From a virus, in IMG/VR virus record IMGVR_UViG_3300021420_000021, positions 30,267-94,266 of that record: 64,000 nucleotides of DNA. One strand, written 5' to 3'. The translations under genes and the position numbers were made by a program. The notes under the pieces were generated by a model. The model was given only the letters and a program-made list of their open reading frames with translations. It searched no databases and had not been told where the DNA came from. How positions within the stretch are numbered: the stretch's first letter is position 1; each line of letters opens with the position of its first letter. Shown in pieces: positions 121 through 30,867 of the stretch.

Positions 121-498
121 ATGGACGAACTCGTCTCGGTCGATTTGACCGAAGTTATCGAGTTGCCGTCTAGCGGAGTGCAATTCTTTCAGACTAACCT
201 AGTCACTCAAAGTAACAATTACAAGTCTGTTGCTGGACTTGTAGGTCTTCGGACTTACATTTTTGGCAGAGACGGCGTATTTGCTATCAATCTAGGTGCA
301 AAAGGCGACACTGGCTATGGTGATGGCGAGTGGCGGAATATAGAATGCAATATTATGCAGAACGTTGCACCGACCGTCGCGGACCCCGAAGGCCTCATAC
401 CGGGATGGACTTCTTACAGAGTTCATTTCACCACGAGCCTCGGACCCGATACTACGATTCGGCAGAGACAAATTGATGCCGCTTCAGCCATAAGCTAA
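121..498 (+). CDS. Major capsid-like protein, C-terminal exon (partial)
   Basis: 125 codons remain from the first ATG; the true exon probably begins at 107-121 after the intron-like element. The pattern YIFGRDGVFAINLG, then DPEGLIPGW, then a terminal TTIRQRQIDA resembles the end of N4-gp56-type coat proteins (a GxxAfgvvxl strand, a DPLxQrxxxGWK segment, a final beta strand). No SD precedes ATG 121, which supports its being an exon and not a gene start. It heads the virion gene block, where a capsid gene is expected. The capsid assignment rests on pattern recall only. Confidence 0.45.
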   Translation: MDELVSVDLTEVIELPSSGVQFFQTNLVTQSNNYKSVAGLVGLRTYIFGRDGVFAINLGAKGDTGYGDGEWRNIECNIMQNVAPTVADPEGLIPGWTSYRVHFTTSLGPDTTIRQRQIDAASAIS

Positions 499-574: not shown

Positions 575-625
575 GGGTAGGGTGCCGCAATCACCTTACC
601 CTGATTCGATAGCTCTATTGCGGAG
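575..625 (+). promoter_or_regulatory. SD-sequestering hairpin/pseudoknot leader
   Basis: Stem 575-584 (GGGTAGGGTG) pairs with 592-601 (CACCTTACCC), one G-U. The 7-nt loop 585-591 (CCGCAAT) is fully complementary to 617-623 (ATTGCGG), whose last bases are the first part of the SD of the gene starting at 636. Pairing would hide the ribosome-binding site. The architecture matches the leader at 4694-4735, with different bases in both helices. Confidence 0.6.
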
Positions 626-635
626 AGAAAATAAC

Positions 636-1220
636 ATGTTTGAAAAAGGCAATACTTTTAGTCAAGGCCGAAAAATTGGTTCGCACAGTGAACAAGAAAT
701 TCAAGCTTTAAAAGAACGCAATGCCGCCCGAAAGGGTCAACCTATCACATCTGAGAAAATGTTAGCCGCTTCGCGAGCGGGGTGCAAAGCAATGAACGCT
801 GTTAGGCACTTAAAAGCAGGCCATATTTTAGAAAATGTTGATTCTGTCGCCCTTACAGGTGATTGTCACATTTGTGGTCAAGTGCCGATTAAGGTAATGA
901 AGCATAGAGCGAATGGCGCTTTACGCGATCAATATTTATGTTGGGTTGGAACTCGTTGCAGAGAGACAGACGGAGCACCTGCCAAAGTCGCGTATAAGAA
1001 TCAAGCATTAGAGATGTGGAACAATCAACATGGCAATTGTGCTTTGTGTTACAAATACATGGTTCGCGCAGGAAACACCAACGAAGGTGCAACGTTAGAT
1101 CATTGTCACACGACCGGATTTATACGCGGCTTTATTCATCAAGGCTGCAATAAAGGTTTGGGTCACTTTTTAGACGACCCTGAAGTTTTAAAAATGGCTG
1201 CTGAGTATTTACTTAGATAG
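636..1220 (+). CDS. Endonuclease VII-type HNH endonuclease, probably homing
   Basis: 194 residues from ATG 636, preceded by GGAGAGAA; an upstream in-frame GTG (582) lies inside the leader hairpin and is unlikely. The C-terminal half has paired cysteines (CHICG; CALC) and the recombination endonuclease VII signature LDHCHTTGFIRGFIH followed by CNKGLG and a short helix (LKMAAEYL). The His-His-Asn set is the betabetaalpha-metal catalytic site and the Cys pairs bind structural zinc. It would cut DNA, most likely as a free-standing homing enzyme, since it sits just downstream of an intron-split gene and has its own promoter and repressive leader. A Holliday-junction role is possible but less likely. 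Confidence 0.8.
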   Translation: MFEKGNTFSQGRKIGSHSEQEIQALKERNAARKGQPITSEKMLAASRAGCKAMNAVRHLKAGHILENVDSVALTGDCHICGQVPIKVMKHRANGALRDQYLCWVGTRCRETDGAPAKVAYKNQALEMWNNQHGNCALCYKYMVRAGNTNEGATLDHCHTTGFIRGFIHQGCNKGLGHFLDDPEVLKMAAEYLLR

Positions 1221-1240
1221 CCGGAAAAGGAACATGAATT

Positions 1241-2464
1241 ATGCCTATCCCCGCACAAACAACGGGTCTTGGAACCGCCGTCGCAGTCACGTTGGCGGGA
1301 ACTGGAGTCATACAGGAAAAGACACCTGTTGCTGGAACTCAAGGAATTTCGCACTACAATGTAACTCTGTCTTTGTCCGGGACCGGATTTCCGAGCACTG
1401 TCGCGGTCAGTGCTTCGACCATTGACGTTGCTGGAAACGTCGTTAGTAATGGCGGCGCTTCAGGATCGACGCAATTGGGCGCAGCCGCCGCAGCTTATGC
1501 TATTCTTGCCGCTGCTGGAATTACTAATACTGGCGCGACTGTCATTTCTGGCGGAAATATCGGTTCGTATCCGACTGCAACTGAAACCGGATTTACCGGG
1601 GCAAATTTTGTTCCTCCGGCGACGACTGATAACGCTGATGCACAAGCAGGACTCGCCGCCGCTTTGGTAACATATAACGCGCTATCGGCTTTGACTTTTA
1701 CGTCTTTGTCCGCGTCTTCGGCCAATTTAAGCACTCTTGGTAACGGAAGTACAGCTTCGACTTATACCGCAGGTAATTATTCTGCTGGCACAAGTATGGA
1801 CATTCCGACGAGTATTACTCTTGACGCGCAAGGTAATCCCGGCGCGGTATTTATATTTAAAGCCGGATCGACACTGACTCTCGAATCTAACGCGTCTGTT
1901 CTTCTTGTCAACGGCGCTCAAGCCGCGAACGTTTATTGGCTGGTCGGTAGTTCATTTACTTCGATCTTTGGAACTGTGTCCGTCATGAACGGAAATATTC
2001 TTGCCAATACAAGTATTACTCTTGGCGGTGGCGTCCTGAATGGCCGAGCGCTCGCCGGAATTGTGACTTCATCTGGCGCAGTTACAATTGCGACTGCCGA
2101 AGCAATTACAGTTCCCGGATTTTCGCAAAGCACAGCTTCAGGAATGAACGCAGTTAGTTATAATGCATGGCCGCGTTTGGTTGGCGGCGTTACACAGACT
2201 CGCGATGGTGTGACTCGTAATGCGCAAGATGTCACTGTTTCTTATCCGGCTCCGACTTCAGGTCCGGGCGGCGTTGCTGATGTGTCAGATGTCAATAATC
2301 CATTCCTTGTTACCGCGTATCGTGTCGGTCAAGCGTGGGTCGAATTCTTTTCTCCAACTTTCGGAAATTCCGAACCATTGGCGACAGATATTGAGTCGAA
2401 TTTGACCGAAGGTTTTCCGACCGATAAGATACAGGCCCAACTTTTAGTAAACGTCGTGAAGTAG
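1241..2464 (+). CDS. Virion Ig-like protein carrying an ice-binding-like (DUF3494) domain
   Basis: 407 residues. Residues 1-~75 and ~293-407 match in pattern the two following genes (TGV..., DVAGN, and a closing strand before VNVVK), so they form one Ig/BIG2-like unit. Residues ~79-292 form a complete DUF3494 (ice-binding protein-like, PF11999) domain: AGITNTG at the N-terminus, IFKAGSTL, NVYWLVG and ILANTSITLGGGVLNGRALAG at the C-terminus. DUF3494 proteins fold as a beta solenoid with a long helix and are best known as antifreeze or adhesion proteins. Inside a virion gene block it is most likely displayed on the capsid or tail surface. Ice binding itself is not shown; the domain could bind surfaces or glycans. 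Confidence 0.85.
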   Translation: MPIPAQTTGLGTAVAVTLAGTGVIQEKTPVAGTQGISHYNVTLSLSGTGFPSTVAVSASTIDVAGNVVSNGGASGSTQLGAAAAAYAILAAAGITNTGATVISGGNIGSYPTATETGFTGANFVPPATTDNADAQAGLAAALVTYNALSALTFTSLSASSANLSTLGNGSTASTYTAGNYSAGTSMDIPTSITLDAQGNPGAVFIFKAGSTLTLESNASVLLVNGAQAANVYWLVGSSFTSIFGTVSVMNGNILANTSITLGGGVLNGRALAGIVTSSGAVTIATAEAITVPGFSQSTASGMNAVSYNAWPRLVGGVTQTRDGVTRNAQDVTVSYPAPTSGPGGVADVSDVNNPFLVTAYRVGQAWVEFFSPTFGNSEPLATDIESNLTEGFPTDKIQAQLLVNVVK

Positions 2465-2483: not shown

Positions 2484-3041
2484 ATGTCTAATCCAGTTCC
2501 TCCCCATAATCCTACTGACGGATTGTCGTCTGCGTGTTTTGTGCAGCTATCAGGCACAGGCGTTATTGTCGATCCGAAGCAGACAAGACCGCCGTCTGCT
2601 AATTACCCAAATGCAGGACATTATGAAGTTACTTTGAGTGTTTCTGGCGCAAATGGTTTAGCGTCTTCTGTCGTTATAACACCATCACTTGTTGATGTGT
2701 CTAATACAGCGTATGCTTCGACTGCTGCGTCTTGGGTTTATCGGTCGTATAACGATCCTCAAGTAACCGAAGCAAGTCTTCCAACAGGACCGGGAAATCC
2801 GACTAATCTTGCGCCGAAGCCGACGCAGACTGCGAAACTTGCGTCTGTTAGCGCATCTGGAGCATCAACAGTAACCGTCACTGCGCTGTCTCCGGGCAAA
2901 GCAATTGTATCCGCAATTTACCCCACCTTCGATAACGCAGAAGGAAATGTTACAGTTGGCAATCTTGGCGGACCCTTGGCCGGAACTACAGTGCCGAAAG
3001 ATTATATTTTTTCATTTCTCGATGTAAAAATATTTCCGTAA
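2484..3041 (+). CDS. Ig-like virion/decoration protein
   Basis: 185 residues, SD AGAGAA. Beta-rich, with a LSGTGVI opening, a TVTVTALSPGKAIVSA segment typical of BIG2-type Ig folds and a terminal beta strand. It is a paralogue of the outer parts of the gene upstream and of the gene downstream (18-bp gap). Position behind the capsid-like gene suggests a head decoration or neck-associated surface protein. No enzyme motif is visible. Confidence 0.6.
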   Translation: MSNPVPPHNPTDGLSSACFVQLSGTGVIVDPKQTRPPSANYPNAGHYEVTLSVSGANGLASSVVITPSLVDVSNTAYASTAASWVYRSYNDPQVTEASLPTGPGNPTNLAPKPTQTAKLASVSASGASTVTVTALSPGKAIVSAIYPTFDNAEGNVTVGNLGGPLAGTTVPKDYIFSFLDVKIFP

Positions 3042-3059: not shown

Positions 3060-3647
3060 ATGCCGCCTCTTTTTCCAAGTTCGCAGAACAGCTTAAATTA
3101 TACAACGGGCGTAGGAATTCCGGCCCGAGTTGCCCTTAGTGGGACCGCAGCCGGAGGTAATAGTGTGACACAGCAACAGTCCGCCACGATTGACGGAACT
3201 TCGTATGTTGTTCTTCAAATGCGTGGTCCTGAATACTATCTTCTGATGACTTTGCCGTCTGATACGTGTCAATTGAGTGCCGGGATTGTAGATGTCGCTG
3301 GCAATGCGAGCACGGTTGATGCGAGTAATACGTTTACTTATACATCGTGGAACGCGAGTTCGGTCGTATTATCGATGTCGAATACTGGAAGTGCATCAGG
3401 ATCGGAGTTCGTATCTTTTTCTGCCGCAAATATGGGTACAGGCTGGATGCCTTCGAATCTGGCATGGGAAAGTAAAGTTGTAACTATCTCTTCGTCTGGT
3501 TTGATTACTGCGAACGCAAAAGGCCATGCGGTAGTGGAGTGTCGCTACCCCTTAAGTAAAGCATCGAACAATCCCGTTACGAATGGTTTAAATACGACAG
3601 ACAACCCACAATTTATTGCGGCATTGCTTGTAATTCGAGTCAATTAA
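3060..3647 (+). CDS. Ig-like virion/decoration protein
   Basis: 195 residues, SD GAAAGG. Third member of the tandem family; the stretch VVTISSSGLITANAKGHAVV is a recognisable BIG2-like strand pair (value, then 'always changing' strand). The C-terminus IAALLVIRVN aligns in pattern with the ends of the two preceding proteins. Likely exposed on the virion; function inferred from position only. Confidence 0.6.
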   Translation: MPPLFPSSQNSLNYTTGVGIPARVALSGTAAGGNSVTQQQSATIDGTSYVVLQMRGPEYYLLMTLPSDTCQLSAGIVDVAGNASTVDASNTFTYTSWNASSVVLSMSNTGSASGSEFVSFSAANMGTGWMPSNLAWESKVVTISSSGLITANAKGHAVVECRYPLSKASNNPVTNGLNTTDNPQFIAALLVIRVN

Positions 3648-7805: not shown

Positions 7806-8030
7806 GTGTACAAAGATGTTGATCATGAGCATGAGAAACCCGGCACGCATCGTGGCATTCTTTGCGCATGGTGTAACACAGCACTCGGCAGATTAGAGCC
7901 GAATATGCAGAAAGTCTTAGAATATCTGGCCGAGTATGGAAAATACTACGAGCCTCCGCTAAAGGATTTAAATGCCCGCTTTGAGCACAATTACGCTAGA
8001 AATGACGATGGATTGGGCGAAACGCCTTAG
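7806..8030 (+). pseudogene. Truncated endonuclease VII-type gene remnant
   Basis: From GTG 7806 the frame encodes DHEHEKPGTHRGILCAWCN and LGRLEP, the second half of the endonuclease VII signature, followed by the usual short helix. The first zinc-binding Cys pair and the N-terminal half are missing, and no SD precedes it. The frame then runs 59 bp into the next virion gene. It looks like the eroded 3' end of a former homing gene between two neck genes; a short functional protein is less likely. Confidence 0.55.
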
Positions 8031-8940
8031 TTTTAACCGCAACTTTGGAATCGGTAATTCTCTTGAACCCGCGCTTACGTCTGCAAACATGGTCGCTCAG
8101 ACGATTCTTTCGCCTCCATTTGACTTCTGGTGGAATTCTCAAGAGATAAGCTTTACGTGTTCGACAGCGCCTCCGGTCGCGAACATTACAAACGTCGCGA
8201 TTACAAGTAAAATTGTAACTCTGTTGATGATAAATACGTTTGTTCAGAATGATCAAGTTTTAATCGCGTCTTTAGTGACTGCGGCGTTTCTTAATGGCGC
8301 AGTATTGACTGTTTTGACGGCATCGCCAACACAGATTACGGCTTATTTTAATCATGCCGACTATGTTTCTGCCGCCGATACAGGGACTGCAACAAAAAGC
8401 ACGACTCAAGATTATACAGTCAATATCCCTAATTTTTCTCACATCGAACATGCGTCTGTATACGATATATTTACGAACAGTCAGACGACCGGAACTGTCG
8501 GCAAGAAGTGGTGGGAACTAGAAGTAAAGAATAATCTGTCTTTAGATTCTACTCTCGGTCGGCCTCAGTTTATCAATCCGCAATTTGAAGATGTTAATAG
8601 TAACGTTACATTTCGAATGATGCCTGCGCCGAGTCAGAATTACCCTGTCGCACTTCACGTTCAGTTAGCGCCGCCGTTGTTTACGAGTTTGAATCAAACA
8701 TGGTCGCCGCTTCCTGACTTTATGCAACACATTTATTCATGGGGTTTTTTAAGTCTGATGTGGGCCTTTGCGGATGATCCGCGTGTTGGTTTCGCGAATC
8801 AAAAATTTACATCTAGTCTGCTCGCCCGCGCAGATGGGCTATCTCAAGAAGAACGCGACACGTTTCTCAACAATTGGAATATGTTGACTGGAACACAGCA
8901 ACAACAACGAGCACAAGGAACGCAGATGCGAGGTATGTAG
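7972..8940 (+). CDS. Neck/adaptor-like virion protein, paralogue of 6688-7773
   Basis: 322 residues; AAGGA sits 5 nt before the ATG. N-terminal helices (LEPALTSANMVAQTIL), then PFDFWWNSQEISF, a beta-rich middle, and a C-terminal helical part (LPDFMQHIYSWGFLSLMWAFADDPR) parallel the 6688 gene. Together they would form parts of the portal-proximal neck. It shares a TAGTG overlap with the next gene. Confidence 0.5.
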   Translation: MPALSTITLEMTMDWAKRLSFNRNFGIGNSLEPALTSANMVAQTILSPPFDFWWNSQEISFTCSTAPPVANITNVAITSKIVTLLMINTFVQNDQVLIASLVTAAFLNGAVLTVLTASPTQITAYFNHADYVSAADTGTATKSTTQDYTVNIPNFSHIEHASVYDIFTNSQTTGTVGKKWWELEVKNNLSLDSTLGRPQFINPQFEDVNSNVTFRMMPAPSQNYPVALHVQLAPPLFTSLNQTWSPLPDFMQHIYSWGFLSLMWAFADDPRVGFANQKFTSSLLARADGLSQEERDTFLNNWNMLTGTQQQQRAQGTQMRGM

Positions 8941-10456: not shown

Positions 10457-13400
10457 ATGTCGAACGCGTTGCAGGCCGCTGGCGCTCAGCCGGACAAACA
10501 AACTAAATTCACAAATTTATATACAGGCCGTTTCTTTTCAGGAATCTGGACAAATCGTTCTCCATTACGTGATGCTGCTTCGACTCGAATAGAAGAAAAG
10601 TTTTACGGGCCACGTGGCGATGCAATGATCGCGGGATCGAACGTCGAAATTACGAATAGGCTGACTTTAGGTCGAAGACCCGGAAATCCGGTTTACGACA
10701 ATGTTAATACTTTTACTAATGTTCTGAGTTTTGACGATTTTCGTATCAGCAAGGGCTTATCTGACATTTTCGGAACGGTGACCGAACAAGTCGATACAAT
10801 GATCGACACAAGCGCTGCTCTATTTGCCGAGAATAGTGCTTTTGTTCTTCAAGGCGGCGTCAATCCAACGACAGTATTTACGAAGTCTCCCGGCGCGGGA
10901 CAAAGTTATGGAATTCAAGTCGGAAACGAATGGTATTTTGGCAACGGCGCGGATAATAAAAAGTGGCTTCAGTCTTTATTTGTTCGATCAAGTGCAAGCA
11001 ATAATGCGACTTTAAATCTTAATTCGTATCCGTTCATGGATACATTTTTGATTAGTAATCCGACGACGAATCCGCAGATTCAGCAATTAATTGGTGCCGC
11101 TGTTCAATCGGGCGCGTCAGGTTCAGTCAATAATATTAACGTCACGAACGTCGTTTTGACGAATGAAGTGTTGACACTTACGACTTCCGCCGCTCCGTTT
11201 ACGACACAGCCTATTGGCACGCAGTTTATGCTATGGGGATTTACAAATCCTGCTACGACATTTTTGAACGGTTCGACTATTACTTTGACTGTCGCTTGGT
11301 CGGGAACGACTATTACTGCGACTTGGACCGGAACGCACGCAAATATGTCGCAGGCGGATACAGCGGTCATTCAAATTGAAAAAGGTGGTACGAACTCTGT
11401 TACAAATACACTTGTACTCGGTCCTACGGTTCCGACATGGGGAACAGTTGCGCCAAGTGCCGCTAACGATTTCATGGGCAGTGTAACGATTGACGGACAG
11501 GCGATTTGGGTCAATCGTGGAATAACTGTCGAAAATTGGGGATTAGCAGCACCGACTGAAGATTTGACTTCAGGTCCGGGCGGAATTTCGTTAACTGGTG
11601 CGGCTTCAGGATTTTCTCCAAATACGTTTTTTGCTCCAGCAAGTGTATTCATAGACCCTAATGGTAATTTATGGGAAGTGACAACCGGAGGCAAATCTGG
11701 CGCAACTGAACCTGCTTGGCCCGCTTCGCCTACGTTTAGTGTAAAGCATGACATTTTTGCAGTTTCAGTCGCAGCTAACGTCGCGACTATATATTGTACG
11801 ACTTTGCCGAGTCCGGGTCAAAGTGTGCAACTTTTCGGGTTACAACAAGCGAACGGAAATGGCGGCGCGCCGAATCTCAACGGCGTGACTTTGACCGTCG
11901 CGACAACCGGAGCAAATTTCTTTACTGCGCCTTTTACGTTCTCAGGGACTTATCCGGCGACTGGTGATGGCGCGGATCAAGGATATGCTATATTTTATGG
12001 TACGACTCAAGCAGACGGAAGTGTAGTCTGGACAAGTCTGCAAAGCGCCGCATCGATGGTTTGGGCTGCGCATACGCATTATCATCAAGATGATTTTTTA
12101 GTCGCGCCTACAGGGTCGAGTACATCGTTATTTCGGTTAAGCAAGAATACGCAACCGTTTATTCAGTCTGATGGAGCGCTATTAAGTACTCTTTATCCAA
12201 CGTATAATTCAAGCCCGATAACCGGATCGTTTAACGCGATTGCAAATCCGATAACTATTAATTCTTGGGCGGATAATTCTAATCCCGCCCGAGGGTTTAA
12301 CGGCGCGTTTAGTCAATCGTATTTATCGGTTCCGACATCCGGATCAGCCGCTGTTTCTACGCCTGTTCCGGGGTCTTTATACGCCGTAACAAATTCGACA
12401 GCAGGCGGCGGACCCGAACAAAGCGGGCCGAACGTCTACTTCTTTGCCGTCAACGGCGCGGGCGAAATAGGTGCGTCAACAGATAGCGGACAAGCTCAAA
12501 ATTGGGAAGCTTCGTTTATTTGTAAAATTTACATTCCTGCTCCCGGAACTTATACGTTTTCTCTTTTACACGATGATGGTGCTTTTTTTTCATTCGATAA
12601 TATTTCTACTTCTGCGTTTTTGACTATTGGTTCGCAGACGAATGTTCCGCCAACGTTTTCCGGATCAGGCGGAAAAACTGCTATTCAAGGTTATACCGGA
12701 GTTGTCGGAAATAATAACTCCGGCGTTACTACAGATTCAGCGACTTGGAGATTTCCAACAGCAGGCGATTACACATTAGAAATTAATTGGAAAGCTTGGC
12801 AAAACGCAGAAGAGATGATTTTTACTTGCCAGAGTTTTAATCTTGCAAGCAGTCCCGACGAATCCGGAACAAATCAACCTGCTTGGCCCGCTTTTACGAC
12901 TACTGGAGCGACCGCGAGTACGACGACTGGAATTACGTTTGGTACAGGCGACGTTATCAAAGAAGCAGGCGGTCAGTATACGTGGAGCAATTTAGGTCCG
13001 ACGAGCGCATATAATGTCTGGTTTGCAAATACGACTTATACCGTGTCAGGAACGCCGATTGTTGATACGAATGGAAATGAACAGCTTCCAATTCAACCCG
13101 GCGTAACTGGATCGACTGCGCCTGTATTCAACGGGACATTGAACGGGATTACGACGATATCCGGATCAACGTTACAGTTTATCAACGCCGGAGGTGTGCC
13201 AATTCAGCCGAACACTCCGGGAAAGATTACGGCTACGAGCGCCCAAGGTTGGATTTATGGGATCGCACTTGTCAATACGTTAGATAATACTGTTTCGAAT
13301 ATTGGGCCGATAGGCCCGCCGAACAGCGCAGGCGGTGTAGGAACAGGGCCACTTATTAGCGGACAAGTTACGTTCTCTCCGGGTGCGGGATTGCCAACTG

Positions 13401-15355
13401 ATCTGACTCAAATCGATCCACAAGCTGATTACGTAGCTATTTTTAGAACGACTGACGGTTTTTCGACTTTGTTACTTATACCGAGTAACGGAAATACCGA
13501 TTATACTGTTCCGTTGACTCAGTATTTACAAAGTGGTTATGTTGATACGACGCCCGATACAGGCTTAGATACGCTCATTCAAGCTGCCGCAGCCGGAGAA
13601 AACACCCCTCCGCTACCGGGCGCGGTTAATCTGACGTATCATTTAAACCGTATTTGGTACTCAATCGGCAATACTGTATATTATACAACCGGGCCGTTAG
13701 CGCCAGTAGGAAACGGTATTAATGGAACTTCGCCATTGAACTTTGACGGTGTGACTTCTTTAATCACTCGATTAGTTCCATCTTCGATAGGCATGTTAGT
13801 GTTCACCGTTTCGGATATTTATATAATCCCGAATCAGGGCAGAACGATTCTTCCGAGTCTTCCGTATGTTCCGGGCGTAGGATTGTCGAGCTATAATGCT
13901 CTTGATATATCAGGGCCGTTAGTCGGCTTCTTTTCGACTGATCATCAGTTTATTAACTTCAATCCTAGCGCGGGCGTCAACATCGTTTCGATGCCAATTG
14001 GCGACCAGTTCCGTAAGAACACCGGACAACCGGGAACATCTTGGAACCCGAAAAATGTCTACGTCGCTTGGTATGTCAACGGCGAAGACATGGGATGGTT
14101 TGTTGCGGACGGCGTTAATGGGTGGTATAGGCTGATTAACAATCCCGCACCCGATTTCGGGCAAAGCTGGAGTCCGTTTGCCACAATTGTAAACGGCGTA
14201 AAAGCTATTAAATCTGTTGAAACCGCTCCGGGAGTACATAATTTACTTCTAGGCCCGTCTTCTTCAGCACCTATTAATCCTTCTCAGTTAGGATCAGCCG
14301 GGAATTACGCACTACTCGCGTATTCTGGAATTACAAATACAGGTTCGTCTGTCATCTTCGGGAATGTTGGTACTGTGACTGCAACGGTTACTCCGGGTGG
14401 ATGGACTCTTGTTCCGCCATCAGTCATAGATAACGCAGACGCAGCAACAGCCGAAGTCGCCGCTCTTGCCGCGTATAATTTTTACGCAGCATTGACGCCA
14501 ACGAAATCCGGGCTGTCTAATCTTTCGACAGGCGGAAACGGAAGTACAGCTTCGACCTATACAGCCGGAGTTTACGCCGGAGCGTCGAGTTTGTCGATGC
14601 CGACAGGAATTACTCTTGATGGCCAAGGTAATACTAATTCTATATTCGTATTCCAAGCCGGATCGACTGTAAATCTTGCGTCCGGACAATCGGTCAATCT
14701 TATTAACGGCGCACAAGCAAGCAACGTATTCTGGGTCGTTGGTACTTCGCTAACAACTGTTGCAACAAGTACAATGGTCGGGACAATTCTTGCTCAAATA
14801 TCTGTCACATTAGGCGGCGGAATTTTGAACGGGCGTGCTCTTGCTGGAATCGGCGGATCAAGCGGGGCGGTAACTATTTCTGCCGCAACTGCGATTACTA
14901 TTTCAGCCGGATTGCCGACAGGTTCCGGATTTATTCGATTTAGAAATCTTGATGCTTCTTCCGATGGCGGAACAGGATTGACGAACGGATTGACTTATCC
15001 TGCATACGGAGTATTCGGATCATACGTACTCGCGCAACCCGGTCAAGTCGCGCAAGTTGCATTCGTTACGACTGACTCAGTAAATACGGGAAGTCCGTTA
15101 ATTTTAGGGCTTTTGATAGACGAAGCTTTGCCTTATTTTACCGGAAGTTTTGAGATGTTGAAGAACTGGACGACCGATCCTCCGGGATTACCCGCCAGTA
15201 AATCAATTCTCGGACAACGCTTTTATTTGTCTGAGCTTCCCAATTCCGCAGCGGCGTTACGCCATATGCAAATCATGTGCCAATGGCCTAGCGAAAGTGC
15301 GCTTAATGAATTGCAGAGCTTTACGGTATTTGGCGATTATGTTCAGGAGCAGTAG
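10457..15355 (+). CDS. Giant tail nozzle/hub protein with PA14-like and DUF3494 domains
   Basis: 1632 residues, SD AAGGAAAG. The N-terminus (WTNRSPLRDAASTRIEEKFY; TNRLTLGRRPGNPVYD) resembles tail tubular B/nozzle proteins, which start with a pass describing inputs from many samples of a ring. Residues ~680-815 look PA14-like (YIPAPGTYTFSLLHDDGAFF; GDYTLEINWKAWQNAEEM), a carbohydrate-binding fold. Residues ~1276-1488 are a complete DUF3494 domain (SGITNTGSSV; IFVFQAGSTV; NVFWVVG; NGRALAG). It sits between LLLGPSS and a GSGFIRFRN segment, as if inserted in a continuous domain. Position before the ejection-protein genes supports a tail role. Surface recognition by the inserts is inferred. Confidence 0.65.
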   Translation: MSNALQAAGAQPDKQTKFTNLYTGRFFSGIWTNRSPLRDAASTRIEEKFYGPRGDAMIAGSNVEITNRLTLGRRPGNPVYDNVNTFTNVLSFDDFRISKGLSDIFGTVTEQVDTMIDTSAALFAENSAFVLQGGVNPTTVFTKSPGAGQSYGIQVGNEWYFGNGADNKKWLQSLFVRSSASNNATLNLNSYPFMDTFLISNPTTNPQIQQLIGAAVQSGASGSVNNINVTNVVLTNEVLTLTTSAAPFTTQPIGTQFMLWGFTNPATTFLNGSTITLTVAWSGTTITATWTGTHANMSQADTAVIQIEKGGTNSVTNTLVLGPTVPTWGTVAPSAANDFMGSVTIDGQAIWVNRGITVENWGLAAPTEDLTSGPGGISLTGAASGFSPNTFFAPASVFIDPNGNLWEVTTGGKSGATEPAWPASPTFSVKHDIFAVSVAANVATIYCTTLPSPGQSVQLFGLQQANGNGGAPNLNGVTLTVATTGANFFTAPFTFSGTYPATGDGADQGYAIFYGTTQADGSVVWTSLQSAASMVWAAHTHYHQDDFLVAPTGSSTSLFRLSKNTQPFIQSDGALLSTLYPTYNSSPITGSFNAIANPITINSWADNSNPARGFNGAFSQSYLSVPTSGSAAVSTPVPGSLYAVTNSTAGGGPEQSGPNVYFFAVNGAGEIGASTDSGQAQNWEASFICKIYIPAPGTYTFSLLHDDGAFFSFDNISTSAFLTIGSQTNVPPTFSGSGGKTAIQGYTGVVGNNNSGVTTDSATWRFPTAGDYTLEINWKAWQNAEEMIFTCQSFNLASSPDESGTNQPAWPAFTTTGATASTTTGITFGTGDVIKEAGGQYTWSNLGPTSAYNVWFANTTYTVSGTPIVDTNGNEQLPIQPGVTGSTAPVFNGTLNGITTISGSTLQFINAGGVPIQPNTPGKITATSAQGWIYGIALVNTLDNTVSNIGPIGPPNSAGGVGTGPLISGQVTFSPGAGLPTDLTQIDPQADYVAIFRTTDGFSTLLLIPSNGNTDYTVPLTQYLQSGYVDTTPDTGLDTLIQAAAAGENTPPLPGAVNLTYHLNRIWYSIGNTVYYTTGPLAPVGNGINGTSPLNFDGVTSLITRLVPSSIGMLVFTVSDIYIIPNQGRTILPSLPYVPGVGLSSYNALDISGPLVGFFSTDHQFINFNPSAGVNIVSMPIGDQFRKNTGQPGTSWNPKNVYVAWYVNGEDMGWFVADGVNGWYRLINNPAPDFGQSWSPFATIVNGVKAIKSVETAPGVHNLLLGPSSSAPINPSQLGSAGNYALLAYSGITNTGSSVIFGNVGTVTATVTPGGWTLVPPSVIDNADAATAEVAALAAYNFYAALTPTKSGLSNLSTGGNGSTASTYTAGVYAGASSLSMPTGITLDGQGNTNSIFVFQAGSTVNLASGQSVNLINGAQASNVFWVVGTSLTTVATSTMVGTILAQISVTLGGGILNGRALAGIGGSSGAVTISAATAITISAGLPTGSGFIRFRNLDASSDGGTGLTNGLTYPAYGVFGSYVLAQPGQVAQVAFVTTDSVNTGSPLILGLLIDEALPYFTGSFEMLKNWTTDPPGLPASKSILGQRFYLSELPNSAAALRHMQIMCQWPSESALNELQSFTVFGDYVQEQ

Positions 15356-28571: not shown

Positions 28572-29088
28572 AGCACTCGGGTCAAATCCTAAAGATTTAC
28601 TCGGGTCAAAGAAAGCAGATGCGACAAAAGTTCCTGCAATCGCAATTGCTTGGGAATCTTTGGCAATGATGGACGGCGCAGGGAAGTACGATCCTTATAA
28701 TTGGCGTGCGAATAAAGTAGTCGCGTCGATTTACATCGCCGCAGCAAAACGTCATCTTGATGCGTGGTTTGAAGGTGAAGAAGAAGCAGAAGATTCTGGT
28801 TGTCATCATCTCGGTCATGCGCGAGCGTGTCTCGGTATTCTTTTAGATGCCCAAGAAACGGGTAATCTTCTTGATGATCGACCAGTAACAGAAACTTCAA
28901 AAGGCGTTCTTAGTCGGGTTATGAATAAGATCGCGTCGAAAATCCCTGCGATGCAAGAGAGACACAGAAAGTTTCATGAAAATAAGAAACCGCAATGTGT
29001 TTCATTTGATGGCGGCTGTGACGGCGATTTAATTGGCTTAGAACACGAATTGCACTGCCCCGCATTGAGCGAATCTGAGCGAATCTGA
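28543..29088 (+). CDS. dATP/dGTP diphosphohydrolase-like (DUF5664) protein
   Basis: 181 residues, SD CAGGAGG; it overlaps the preceding gene by 29 nt. GSNPKDLLGSKKADATKVP, then W..L.M.DGAGKYDPYNWR and AAKRHLDAWFEGEEEAEDSG with HHLGHARACLGILLD form the DUF5664 family pattern; the acidic EEEAEDSG and HLGHA would coordinate metal like MazG-type all-alpha pyrophosphatases. A C-terminal extension (~110-181) has CVSFDGGCDGDL and HCPA, possibly zinc-binding. Related enzymes remove dATP in Z-genome phages, but no PurZ-like gene is in this window. Confidence 0.7.
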   Translation: MNEVQAPKSKALGSNPKDLLGSKKADATKVPAIAIAWESLAMMDGAGKYDPYNWRANKVVASIYIAAAKRHLDAWFEGEEEAEDSGCHHLGHARACLGILLDAQETGNLLDDRPVTETSKGVLSRVMNKIASKIPAMQERHRKFHENKKPQCVSFDGGCDGDLIGLEHELHCPALSESERI

Positions 29089-29131
29089 ACGAATCTGAAC
29101 GAACATATGTAGACGATATTCCGTTTTAACA

Positions 29132-29240
29132 TCGGGCAAGTAGCTTATGGCTACTCTTCCCGCAGACGCCCATCGGAAGGCCAACGCCTGACTTCGCGCT
29201 GTCTTAGCCCATTTACAGGATGGGACTACTTGGGCTTAAT
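29132..29240 (+). ncRNA. Structured intergenic RNA candidate
   Basis: A 167-bp gap (29089-29255) without a gene. Hairpin AGTAGC (29139-29144)/GCTACT (29150-29155), flanked by CGGG and CCCG; hairpin 29205-29212/29220-29228 with 7-nt loop and one bulge; and CTACTTG (29226-29232) complementary to CAAGTAG (29137-29143), giving an alternative long-range pairing. The 3' end lies just before the SD of 29256. Type unknown; mutually exclusive pairings suggest a switch or a leader. Confidence 0.4.
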
Positions 29241-29255
29241 TAACCGAAAGGATTT

Positions 29256-29396
29256 ATGAACAAGCAAGAGCCAAAGTCTGAATTGGCTAAAGATTATCCT
29301 TGTATATTTAATAACTACTTCAGTCAAGATAAAAAACCCTCGCCGCCACTCGGACACGAAATTCCCAAAGATAGACAGGACGAACTATGTTGCTAA
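29256..29396 (+). CDS. 46-residue hypothetical protein
   Basis: SD GAAAGGA ahead of the ATG. Product polar with a Pro-rich middle (KKPSPPLGHEIPKDRQDEL) and a Cys-Cys end. The next gene begins inside its last codons. Too short to assign. Confidence 0.55.
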   Translation: MNKQEPKSELAKDYPCIFNNYFSQDKKPSPPLGHEIPKDRQDELCC

Positions 29397-29764
29397 TCGC
29401 TACTTATACAACTTATGAAATGTTAAAGTATTGGTTACCCTTGATTTCTGCGGGCGGTATTGTCATTAAAGCGTACTTGACAGCGAAGAAAAACATTAGT
29501 GAGTATACGAATGCGTTGCTTCACAATCATATGGCAGGCATTGAAGCAGCGGCCAAGAGTACTGAAATTGAGACTAAAAAGACAAATGAGTTATTGAAAT
29601 CTTCGGGCGATCATTATCAAACTGTCGTAACTAAACTCGATACAGTATTCGAGAATATGAATCAGCATCAAGAAAAGCAAATGCAAGTTTGGACTGGAGT
29701 TGCAAATACTTTGGCAATTCTTGAGGATCGTTCGCGAGTTTCACGCCGCGCAAGGAAGAAATAA
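29387..29764 (+). CDS. Membrane-anchored coiled-coil protein
   Basis: 125 residues. One N-terminal hydrophobic segment (~10-30, YWLPLISAGGIVIKAYL) followed by a long helix rich in Lys, Glu and Gln and a basic end (RRARKK). The layout resembles small phage accessory membrane proteins of the lysis region. Coupled to its neighbours by overlaps. Confidence 0.55.
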   Translation: MLLIATYTTYEMLKYWLPLISAGGIVIKAYLTAKKNISEYTNALLHNHMAGIEAAAKSTEIETKKTNELLKSSGDHYQTVVTKLDTVFENMNQHQEKQMQVWTGVANTLAILEDRSRVSRRARKK

Positions 29765-30051
29765 TGCAGACATCAAAAGTCAGTATCGATGATAATCAAG
29801 ATAAAGTTGCAACAACGCTTCTCGGAATGCGAACTTCCGAACATGACACGATTCAGTCGCGAACTACAGGCCGAATGCACGAAATCGCGATTACGCCAGT
29901 TGGCGGCGGACTTGTGCCTAAGAATCCATTCGCGAGCGCTGCTCAAAGAAGTTATATGCACGCAAATCCAGAAGTTCTCGGTAAAAAAGGTTTAGCCGAA
30001 TGGGACGCGGCGAGCAAAGGTCAGAAAGTACCTTACAAAGTAAAGAAGTAG
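29764..30051 (+). CDS. Hypothetical phage protein with AQR..HANPE motif
   Basis: 95 residues. The C-terminal part NPFASAAQRSYMHANPEVLG then EWDAASKGQKVPYKV is a pattern seen in many small phage proteins of unknown function. It begins at the A of the previous TAA. No catalytic motif. Confidence 0.55.
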   Translation: MQTSKVSIDDNQDKVATTLLGMRTSEHDTIQSRTTGRMHEIAITPVGGGLVPKNPFASAAQRSYMHANPEVLGKKGLAEWDAASKGQKVPYKVKK

Positions 30052-30055
30052 TTTT

Positions 30056-30110
30056 GCACCGCTGAACAAGGGATTCCTTCGGGAAGCAGCGATGAGTGCG
30101 TGATGCCTTG
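30056..30110 (+). ncRNA. Compact structured RNA candidate with pseudoknot
   Basis: GCAC (30056-30059)/GTGC (30096-30099), GCTG (30061-30064)/CAGC (30087-30090), and TTCC-TTCG-GGAA (30074-30085, a UUCG tetraloop) nest into one long hairpin. CAAGG in its internal loop (30067-30071) is complementary to CCTTG (30106-30110), a possible pseudoknot. It fills the 84-bp gap before the next gene. Confidence 0.4.
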
Positions 30111-30135
30111 CTTGGGCGCATTCTAGGATAATTCG

Positions 30136-30564
30136 ATGTTTAAGTTTTTCCGGCGTACTTGTCTTTATATTCTTATAATTCCTGTTTTATTCACTTTTCT
30201 CGGCGCATTGAGTAATCAAATCGTATTACAAGCGAATCACGACACTTTTCCTGTAATGATCAGCAACGCAAAATTATTTGAACATAAACACGCATTGGCG
30301 AAAATTGCTGAATCGGATTCAGACGCCGATGCTGTTGAAAAAGCGACATTACGATTAGTCGAACTTGATCATGGATTTCTCGATGATACTCATATTGTTA
30401 TGACCGACAAGACGCATTTCAATTTTTTAGCCGACGTATTTGATTTCCGGCATGAAGGAATTGAAAGCATTGGCGATTTATTACTCAAACTTGGCGAATT
30501 TACTTGGACTTACGTGCCGTTTATTTTCGTCTTTGCTGTGATCGGTAAATTGAAGAATCTATAA
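30136..30564 (+). CDS. Two-segment membrane protein
   Basis: 142 residues. Hydrophobic segments at ~8-28 (LYILIIPVLFTFLGAL) and ~122-138 (YVPFIFVFAVIGKL), with a charged soluble part between. Possibly a lysis or inner-membrane accessory protein. Weak SD (AGGATAATTCG). Family not recognised. Confidence 0.5.
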   Translation: MFKFFRRTCLYILIIPVLFTFLGALSNQIVLQANHDTFPVMISNAKLFEHKHALAKIAESDSDADAVEKATLRLVELDHGFLDDTHIVMTDKTHFNFLADVFDFRHEGIESIGDLLLKLGEFTWTYVPFIFVFAVIGKLKNL

Positions 30565-30570
30565 GGCTGT

Positions 30571-30867
30571 ATGGCAAATATTTCTAATATTAAAAAAGTT
30601 CCGGTTTCAATTCAAGGTAATCCGAGCGGTTCTGTAGTGCCGATTACGATTTTATGGCAATCGCCATTTTTTGATACGAATTATGCCATTAGCATAACTC
30701 TCGAAAATACATCCGATTTATCTGAATTGACGTTAGGTACGGGATATCTATACTTTAAAAATATGATTAACGTTACTCCAGCGGGTTGTACTGTTCTGCT
30801 TGGCGCGTATTCACCGACTTCAGCGGTTCTTACCGGAGTGGTTCACGCAATCGCTTCACATCAATAA
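30571..30867 (+). CDS. Small beta-rich protein
   Basis: 98 residues, all-beta in appearance (SVVPITILWQ; TVLLGAYSPTSAVLTGVVHA). It sits between membrane proteins in the lysis/tail-fibre interval; a virion minor protein is the simplest guess. Confidence 0.45.
   Translation: MANISNIKKVPVSIQGNPSGSVVPITILWQSPFFDTNYAISITLENTSDLSELTLGTGYLYFKNMINVTPAGCTVLLGAYSPTSAVLTGVVHAIASHQ

What the first reader, a model, noticed from the sequence alone, without database searches (positions are those of the whole stretch)
1241..2464. Ice-binding-like (DUF3494) domain inside a phage surface protein
A full-length DUF3494 domain replaces or extends a loop of an Ig-like protein that also occurs without it in the two next genes. 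DUF3494 is typically a bacterial or eukaryotic secreted or adhesin domain. On a virion it could bind ice, mineral or host-surface polymers.
Basis: partly seen in the sequence, partly recalled or inferred. Interest (0 to 1): 0.7.

Follow-up and report, generated by a model that had tools for sequence, protein, structure and literature searches.

The report
Shuffled ice-binding modules in soil phages
This soil phage carries two copies of a protein module related to antifreeze proteins, each spliced into a different gene of its particle-building cluster, and related phages have put the same module into many other proteins, which suggests that their particles may stick to ice or a similar surface.

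Summary
The 407-aa ORF at 1241-2464 is an Ig-like protein, encoded next to the capsid gene, with a complete DUF3494 (PF11999) domain inserted in one loop. Two tandem paralogues (2484-3041, 3060-3647) lack the insert.

In IMG/VR I found about 80 non-redundant copies on 61 viral contigs. Sixty-eight of them form one virus-only clade; the best cellular match is about 44% identical. Most are internal insertions, in at least 17 unrelated protein contexts, including the SU10-type head-tail adaptor and three different loops of the large tail-cluster protein. Domain and host-protein histories disagree, and one pair with 93%/79% identical flanks has domains only 54% identical, so the cassette is swapped. 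The only cultured relative found, Tunturiibacter phage Tunturi_3 (Arctic tundra), has the orthologous genes without DUF3494.

The B-face that binds ice in solved DUF3494 proteins is strongly constrained (Thr rank, small-residue column). Virion location is inferred from genes; ice binding is untested. This is a new variant of a known kind: promiscuous virion display domains. Earlier reports treated phage PF11999 as host-cryoprotection AMGs.

The parts
1241..2464 (+). Ig-like protein carrying an internal DUF3494 domain, 407 aa
   Evidence: PF11999 E 3.6e-35; paralogy to the next gene once the insert is removed
1463..2122 (+). DUF3494 cassette 1 (residues 75-294; Pfam envelope 88-283)
   Evidence: dN/dS 0.084 against L004
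1241..1462 (+). N-terminal half of the Ig-like scaffold
   Evidence: alignment to tandem paralogues
2123..2461 (+). C-terminal half of the Ig-like scaffold
   Evidence: alignment to tandem paralogues
2484..3041 (+). Ig-like paralogue without DUF3494 (185 aa)
   Evidence: weak PKD/Big_2 matches below cut-off
3060..3647 (+). second, more diverged Ig-like paralogue without DUF3494 (195 aa)
   Evidence: weak Big_2 match below cut-off
10457..15355 (+). 1632-aa tail-cluster protein (nozzle-like by position only) with an internal DUF3494 domain
   Evidence: PF11999 E 1.4e-31 at residues 1287-1477; orthologues L007, L009 and Tunturi_3 gp19 lack the insert
14276..14911 (+). DUF3494 cassette 2 (residues 1274-1485)
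7972..8940 (+). 322-aa adaptor orthologue without DUF3494; its orthologues in L007 (685 aa) and L009 (924 aa) carry the cassette
   Evidence: SU10_adaptor PF24175 in Tunturi_3 gp13 and in L007
121..498 (+). C-terminal part of the major capsid protein gene (its N-terminal part lies upstream of the window)
   Evidence: continuous MCP in L019 and Tunturi_3 covers both parts
582..1220 (+). Endonuclease VII-type gene directly upstream of the Ig-DUF3494 gene
   Evidence: PF02945 E 5.1e-16

Best explanation
DUF3494 here is a surface-binding module that this group of soil tailed phages recombines as a self-contained cassette into exposed loops of virion proteins. SHOWN: the domain is full length, inserted in frame in two unrelated genes of this phage, under purifying selection, part of a virus-only clade, found at many different insertion points, and swapped without its flanks. 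INFERRED: the host proteins are on the particle (Ig-like protein beside the capsid gene, head-tail adaptor, large tail-cluster protein), so each virion displays several copies. The N- and C-terminal coils of the DUF3494 solenoid are neighbours in solved structures (order b1-b6-b5-b4-b3-b2), so it can be dropped into a loop without disturbing the host fold. LIKELY, NOT SHOWN: the conserved flat Thr/Ser/Ala/Gly B-face binds ice, letting particles adsorb to or survive at ice in freezing soil. I put ice as the main ligand at about 0.5, and a displayed binding module of some kind at about 0.8.
For: Domain and fold. Insertion into a known scaffold. Second copy. About 80 non-redundant copies on 61 viral contigs, 65 of 77 full-length ones internal, at least 17 context families. 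Virus-only clade of 68 copies (support 100/90), in which the window's copy 1 groups with an adaptor insertion (L007/L009) and another phage's large-protein insertion (L014), not with the window's own copy 2; at least 33 context changes on the tree. Same large protein, three insertion loops: W, L014 and L105, with insert-free orthologues L007, L009 and Tunturi_3 gp19. Cassette swap: L068 and L085 flanks 93%/79% identical, domain 54%, while L068 and L090 flanks are 55%/60% and the domain 82%; nucleotide identity drops at the domain start. Adaptor identity: PF24175. Every one of nine DUF3494 phage records searched whole has two or more copies. B-face: outward columns 1, 2 and 4 are 94% T/S/A/G, entropy 0.69 against 1.30 elsewhere (as low in 0.03% of random column sets); col 4 Thr in 65/68 (b1), 57/68 (b6), 64/68 (b5) and 67/68 (b4); the AnpIBP S153/T156 equivalents kept in 64/68 (Ser) and 67/68 (Thr) (mutation data PMC7277481). 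dN/dS 0.084. Coil order from PMC7966756.
Against: No virion proteomics; SU10 gp10, the positional analogue of the Ig-like gene, was not seen in the SU10 cryo-EM map (PMC9509320). The 1632-aa protein could not be identified by fold (AF2 pLDDT 29) or by profile beyond a weak 'head decoration' repeat match in its orthologues. The same B-face pattern exists in cellular DUF3494 proteins, not all of which are proven ice binders. Sample temperatures of the contigs are unknown to me, and the Tunturi_3 paper reports IMG/VR relatives of Tunturi phages in temperate and tropical soils too. Column entropy was not corrected for phylogeny, and random columns are an imperfect control.
Confidence: 0.62

Rival explanations
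1. The cassette is a displayed adhesin for a non-ice ligand (host envelope glycan, biofilm polymer, plant or soil polysaccharide, mineral), like the Ig-like domains proposed to hold phages on mucus.
For: Many unrelated protein contexts and copies fit any surface ligand; [quoted passage not shown] relatives of Tunturi phages occur in non-Arctic soils.
Against: The B-face is strongly conserved, with the small-residue and Thr pattern of solved ice binders and almost no charged or aromatic outward residues of the kind glycan binders usually use.
Confidence: 0.3
2. The gene is an auxiliary gene: the domain is made in the infected cell and protects the host from freezing, as proposed for PF11999 genes in Arctic marine viruses.
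For: Published reading of three Arctic vOTUs (PMC11515562).
Against: Here the domain is nested inside structural-cluster proteins including the SU10-type adaptor and sits between MCP and tail genes. The Ig-DUF3494 ORF starts directly with the Ig-like part; no signal peptide was seen by eye, and no predictor was run.
Confidence: 0.07
3. The domain is a neutral or structural spacer spread by recombination hot spots (repeats, homing endonucleases) with no ligand.
For: Several HNH, EndoVII and LAGLIDADG genes lie around it; another repeat domain occupies the same Ig loop in Tunturi_3 gp7.
Against: Purifying selection is stronger on the domain (dN/dS 0.084) than on the flanks (0.145, 0.162), and the B-face is more constrained than the rest of the domain.
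Confidence: 0.08

Closest known systems
DUF3494 / PF11999 ice-binding proteins (FfIBP, ColAFP, TisAFP, AnpIBP, SfIBP_1)
   Same: Full-length domain, same predicted fold, ice-binding B-face columns conserved.
   Different: Known ones are proteins of cells. Here the domain is an internal insertion in phage structural-cluster proteins and belongs to a separate virus-only clade. Ice binding untested.
Promiscuous Ig-like domains of tailed-phage virion proteins (own knowledge of the literature; not tested here beyond the scaffold)
   Same: A display domain found on many unrelated virion proteins and lost or gained between relatives.
   Different: A beta-solenoid of about 220 residues, mostly inserted inside loops; here one host is itself an Ig-like protein.
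SU10 / Kuravirus-type podoviruses and Tunturiibacter phage Tunturi_3
   Same: SU10-type portal and adaptor, an Ig-like gene next to the MCP (SU10 gp10 position), Tunturi_3 gene order and orthologues.
   Different: Tunturi_3 has no DUF3494. Its gp7 has a different repeat insert in the same loop, and gp19 has no insert at the cassette site.
Viral PF11999 'AMGs' of polar waters (PMC11515562) and Hyperionvirus DUF3494 proteins (BFVD)
   Same: DUF3494 in a viral genome.
   Different: Reported as host-cryoprotection genes or not interpreted; no virion insertion or shuffling was described in the passages read.

Membership tests
DUF3494 / PF11999 domain family | Profile match over the full domain above the curated cut-off | tested here: met
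   122 and 110 bits against 28.7, profile 1-202 and 2-205 of 208
DUF3494 / PF11999 domain family | Discontinuous beta-solenoid with alpha-helix on the a-face | tested here: met
   AF2 model with long helix 134-149 and solenoid strands; 31/31 significant PDB hits are DUF3494 proteins
Functional ice-binding protein | B-face residue pattern of characterised IBPs | tested here: met
   AnpIBP columns mapped; Thr rank, small-residue column and S153/T156 equivalents conserved
Functional ice-binding protein | Measured ice affinity, thermal hysteresis or recrystallisation inhibition | not testable with these tools
   needs protein
Promiscuous virion display domain | Same domain in several unrelated virion-cluster proteins, present or absent among relatives | tested here: met
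   at least 17 contexts; adaptor, Ig-like and large protein with and without insert
Promiscuous virion display domain | Protein present in the particle | not testable with these tools
   gene-order and family inference only
SU10-type podovirus | SU10-type portal and adaptor | tested here: met
   portal PF23899 E 1.8e-18; adaptor PF24175 E 8.7e-6 in the 39%-identical orthologue Tunturi_3 gp13, just below its gathering score
SU10-type nozzle protein (the 1632-aa ORF) | Platform plus beta-propeller fold | tested here: inconclusive
   no PDB hit outside DUF3494; AF2 model unusable, pLDDT 29
Cryoprotective AMG | Free-standing gene acting in or on the host cell | tested here: not met
   domain nested in structural-cluster or other larger phage proteins in nearly all copies

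The most novel reading that the evidence does not exclude
A large group of soil phages uses interchangeable ice-binding cassettes, plugged into adaptor, capsid-adjacent and tail proteins, so that the virions themselves adsorb to ice or resist freezing: a virion-level adaptation to frozen soils.
Probability: 0.42. Interest if true: 0.85.

Novelty: new variant of a known kind. Interest (0 to 1): 0.66.

Why it matters
It would be a clear case of an antifreeze-type fold used on virus particles, and of a domain other than the Ig fold being traded between unrelated virion proteins. It changes the reading of PF11999 genes in viral metagenomes (usually called cryoprotective auxiliary genes), and it makes phage persistence in freezing soil testable with a single small recombinant domain and an existing culture system (Tunturiibacter phages).

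Tried and rejected
(1) AMG or host-protection reading: rejected as main explanation because the copies are nested in virion-cluster proteins. (2) Recent capture from the host: no cellular relative above about 50% identity (and that over a 100-residue piece; about 44-45% for longer matches) among the best 80 hits of a scan of 84,980 bacterial and archaeal genomes, and the tree puts 68 viral copies in one clade. (3) Recent within-genome duplication as the source of the window's two copies: rejected, they lie in different subclades. (4) Fold of the 1632-aa protein from the L007 orthologue: model failed (pLDDT 29), so 'nozzle' stays positional. (5) PHROGs gave no family for the Ig-DUF3494 protein or the 1632-aa protein. 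(6) tblastn of the whole domain against cultured phages gave no match even at E 10, probably because low-complexity masking hides much of it; an 88-aa piece gave only chance hits, and a profile search of Tunturi_3 gave none. So absence from other cultured phages is not well tested. (7) Rfam found no group I intron in the window virus's split MCP region. (8) IMG sample numbers could not be traced to habitats through papers. (9) A scan with the next Ig paralogue found only the three nearest phages.

Full report
WHAT IS THERE. The window is bases 30267-94266 of a 94,266-base IMG/VR virus record. Upstream lie a terminase large subunit (phrog_38), an SU10-type portal (PF23899, E 1.8e-18) and a major capsid protein gene (phrog_1357). 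[quoted passage not shown] An Endonuclease VII gene follows (582-1220), then the gene of the finding (1241-2464) and two Ig-like paralogues (2484-3041, 3060-3647). PF11999 covers residues 88-283 of the 407-aa product at E 3.6e-35. PDB relatives are ice-binding proteins only. The AF2 domain model is confident, and all 31 significant Foldseek hits are DUF3494 proteins. Cutting out residues 75-294 leaves an Ig-like protein that aligns end to end with the next gene (33.5% over 170 aa, E 1e-11). The domain is thus an insertion in a loop.

A SECOND COPY. The same genome has a second DUF3494 domain at window 14276-14911, inside the 1632-aa ORF 10457-15355 (PF11999 E 1.4e-31). It is 52-58% identical to the first. 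A whole-record search finds exactly these two, and none in 14 control genomes.

A FAMILY OF INSERTIONS. Scans of IMG/VR gave 80 non-redundant copies on 61 contigs. Of 77 full-length copies, 65 are internal with at least 40 residues before and 25 after, and 10 are N-terminal. Grouping by flank similarity gives 17 context families. That is a lower bound, because another shared repeat domain merges unrelated proteins by single linkage. Nine DUF3494 phage records searched whole have two or more copies each (six on a 223-kb contig), while Tunturi_3 has none.

SAME PROTEIN, DIFFERENT LOOPS. In the large tail-cluster protein, the window phage has the domain after 'VHNLLLG'. L014 has it about 45 residues earlier, before 'GWYRL'. 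In L105 the flanking text places it about 20 residues later, after the 'STDGG' motif. L007, L009 and Tunturi_3 gp19 have none. In the gene of the 322-aa protein (7972-8940) the window phage, L014 and L022 have no domain, while L007 and L009 do. That protein is the SU10-type adaptor: PF24175 matches its Tunturi_3 orthologue gp13 (E 8.7e-6, just under the gathering score) and, more weakly, the L007 protein.

CASSETTE BEHAVIOUR. A tree of 77 viral and 50 cellular domains puts 68 viral copies in one clade with support 100/90 and no cellular member. The remaining viral copies (an FN3-like group, L029, L040) fall outside it, with long branches. Inside the clade the window's Ig copy groups with the L014 large-protein copy and the L007/L009 adaptor copies (99/92), away from the window's own second copy. 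With my context labels the tree needs at least 33 changes for 23 labels. Direct swaps are visible: L068 and L085 have 93% and 79% identical flanks but 54% identical domains, whereas L068 and L090 have 55% and 60% flanks and 82% domains. The nucleotide identity of L068/L085 falls from 80-96% to about 50% at the domain start. A caution: tree bootstraps had not fully settled.

CULTURED RELATIVE. Tunturiibacter phage Tunturi_3 (PP885686.1) is a podovirus of an Acidobacteriota host from a Finnish tundra meadow (PMC11924767). It shares the gene order and orthologues: terminase 50%, portal 59%, MCP about 80%, adaptor 39%, large protein 38-50% in pieces. Its gp7, next to the MCP, is an Ig-like relative (z 9.8 against the window protein with both inserts removed; negative controls near 0). 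It carries a different insert, residues 71-224, in the same loop. So that loop accepts different modules. An Acidobacteriota host for the window phage is a reasonable guess, not shown.

IS THE ICE FACE KEPT? PMC7277481 lists the B-face of AnpIBP and shows that S153Y and T156Y lower activity to 17%. Mapped onto the phage clade, column 4 is Thr in 65/68 (b1), 57/68 (b6), 64/68 (b5), 67/68 (b4), mostly Thr or Asn in b3, and mostly Asp or Thr in b2. Column 2 holds almost only small residues. The S153 and T156 equivalents are kept in 64/68 and 67/68. The outward columns 1, 2 and 4 have mean entropy 0.69 against 1.30 elsewhere; 0.03% of random column sets are as low. In cells the figures are 1.06 and 1.33. 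The domain is under stronger purifying selection (dN/dS 0.084) than its flanks (0.145, 0.162). This fits a working binding face and, by analogy with solved relatives, ice. It is not proof: cellular DUF3494 proteins share the pattern and some may bind other substrates (PMC12337378).

WHY IT CAN BE PLUGGED IN. In solved DUF3494 structures the coil order is b1-b6-b5-b4-b3-b2, so the N- and C-terminal coils are neighbours (PMC7966756). That is what an insertable loop domain needs. I could not measure the distance on the model here.

WHAT IS INFERRED. Virion location rests on gene order and families. SU10 gp10, the Ig-like gene beside the MCP, resembles minor capsid and head-fibre proteins but was not seen in the SU10 map (PMC9509320). 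The adaptor is an established virion component in SU10 (same paper). 'Nozzle' for the 1632-aa protein is positional only, since its model failed.

PRIOR KNOWLEDGE. No open-access paper in the searched library holds both 'DUF3494' and 'phage'. One paper reports three PF11999 genes in Arctic vOTUs as cryoprotective auxiliary genes, with homologues in Synechococcus phage S-SKS1 (PMC11515562). BFVD holds DUF3494 proteins of Hyperionvirus. Phage-encoded DUF3494 as such is therefore not new; the inserted, shuffled structural-gene module appears to be.

Noticed in passing
L042:12818-14764 (record 28818-30764; C-terminal part = window 121-498); L003:6901-9077; L004; L022; L023; L068: The major capsid protein gene is interrupted at many different positions in these phages (after residue 217 in the window virus; about four interruptions in L003), often with LAGLIDADG ORFs, and is continuous in Tunturi_3 and L019. 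One weak group I intron match lies in L068 (E 0.0013, below gathering); none in the window virus.
   Followed up: partly
Tunturi_3 gp7 (L205:7573-8511), L007-L018, L024, large tail-cluster proteins: A second promiscuous repeat of about 70 aa ('YTGTxTGGAxNxFxGxxFTVxGFTNxxNNGTF') is scattered over structural-cluster proteins and sits in the same Ig loop as DUF3494 in Tunturi_3.
   Followed up: partly
window 582-1240: The Endonuclease VII gene next to the Ig-DUF3494 gene has no similar counterpart at that place in the near-identical relative L003; DNA similarity resumes at about 1240, the start of the Ig-DUF3494 gene.
   Followed up: no
window 14340-14450 against L070: Within otherwise about 90% identical DNA, the first part of cassette 2 drops to about 60% identity, suggesting partial cassette conversion.
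   Followed up: no
BFVD A0A3G5A745, A0A3G5AEI1, A0A3G5ACG7: Giant virus Hyperionvirus has at least three DUF3494 proteins.
   Followed up: no
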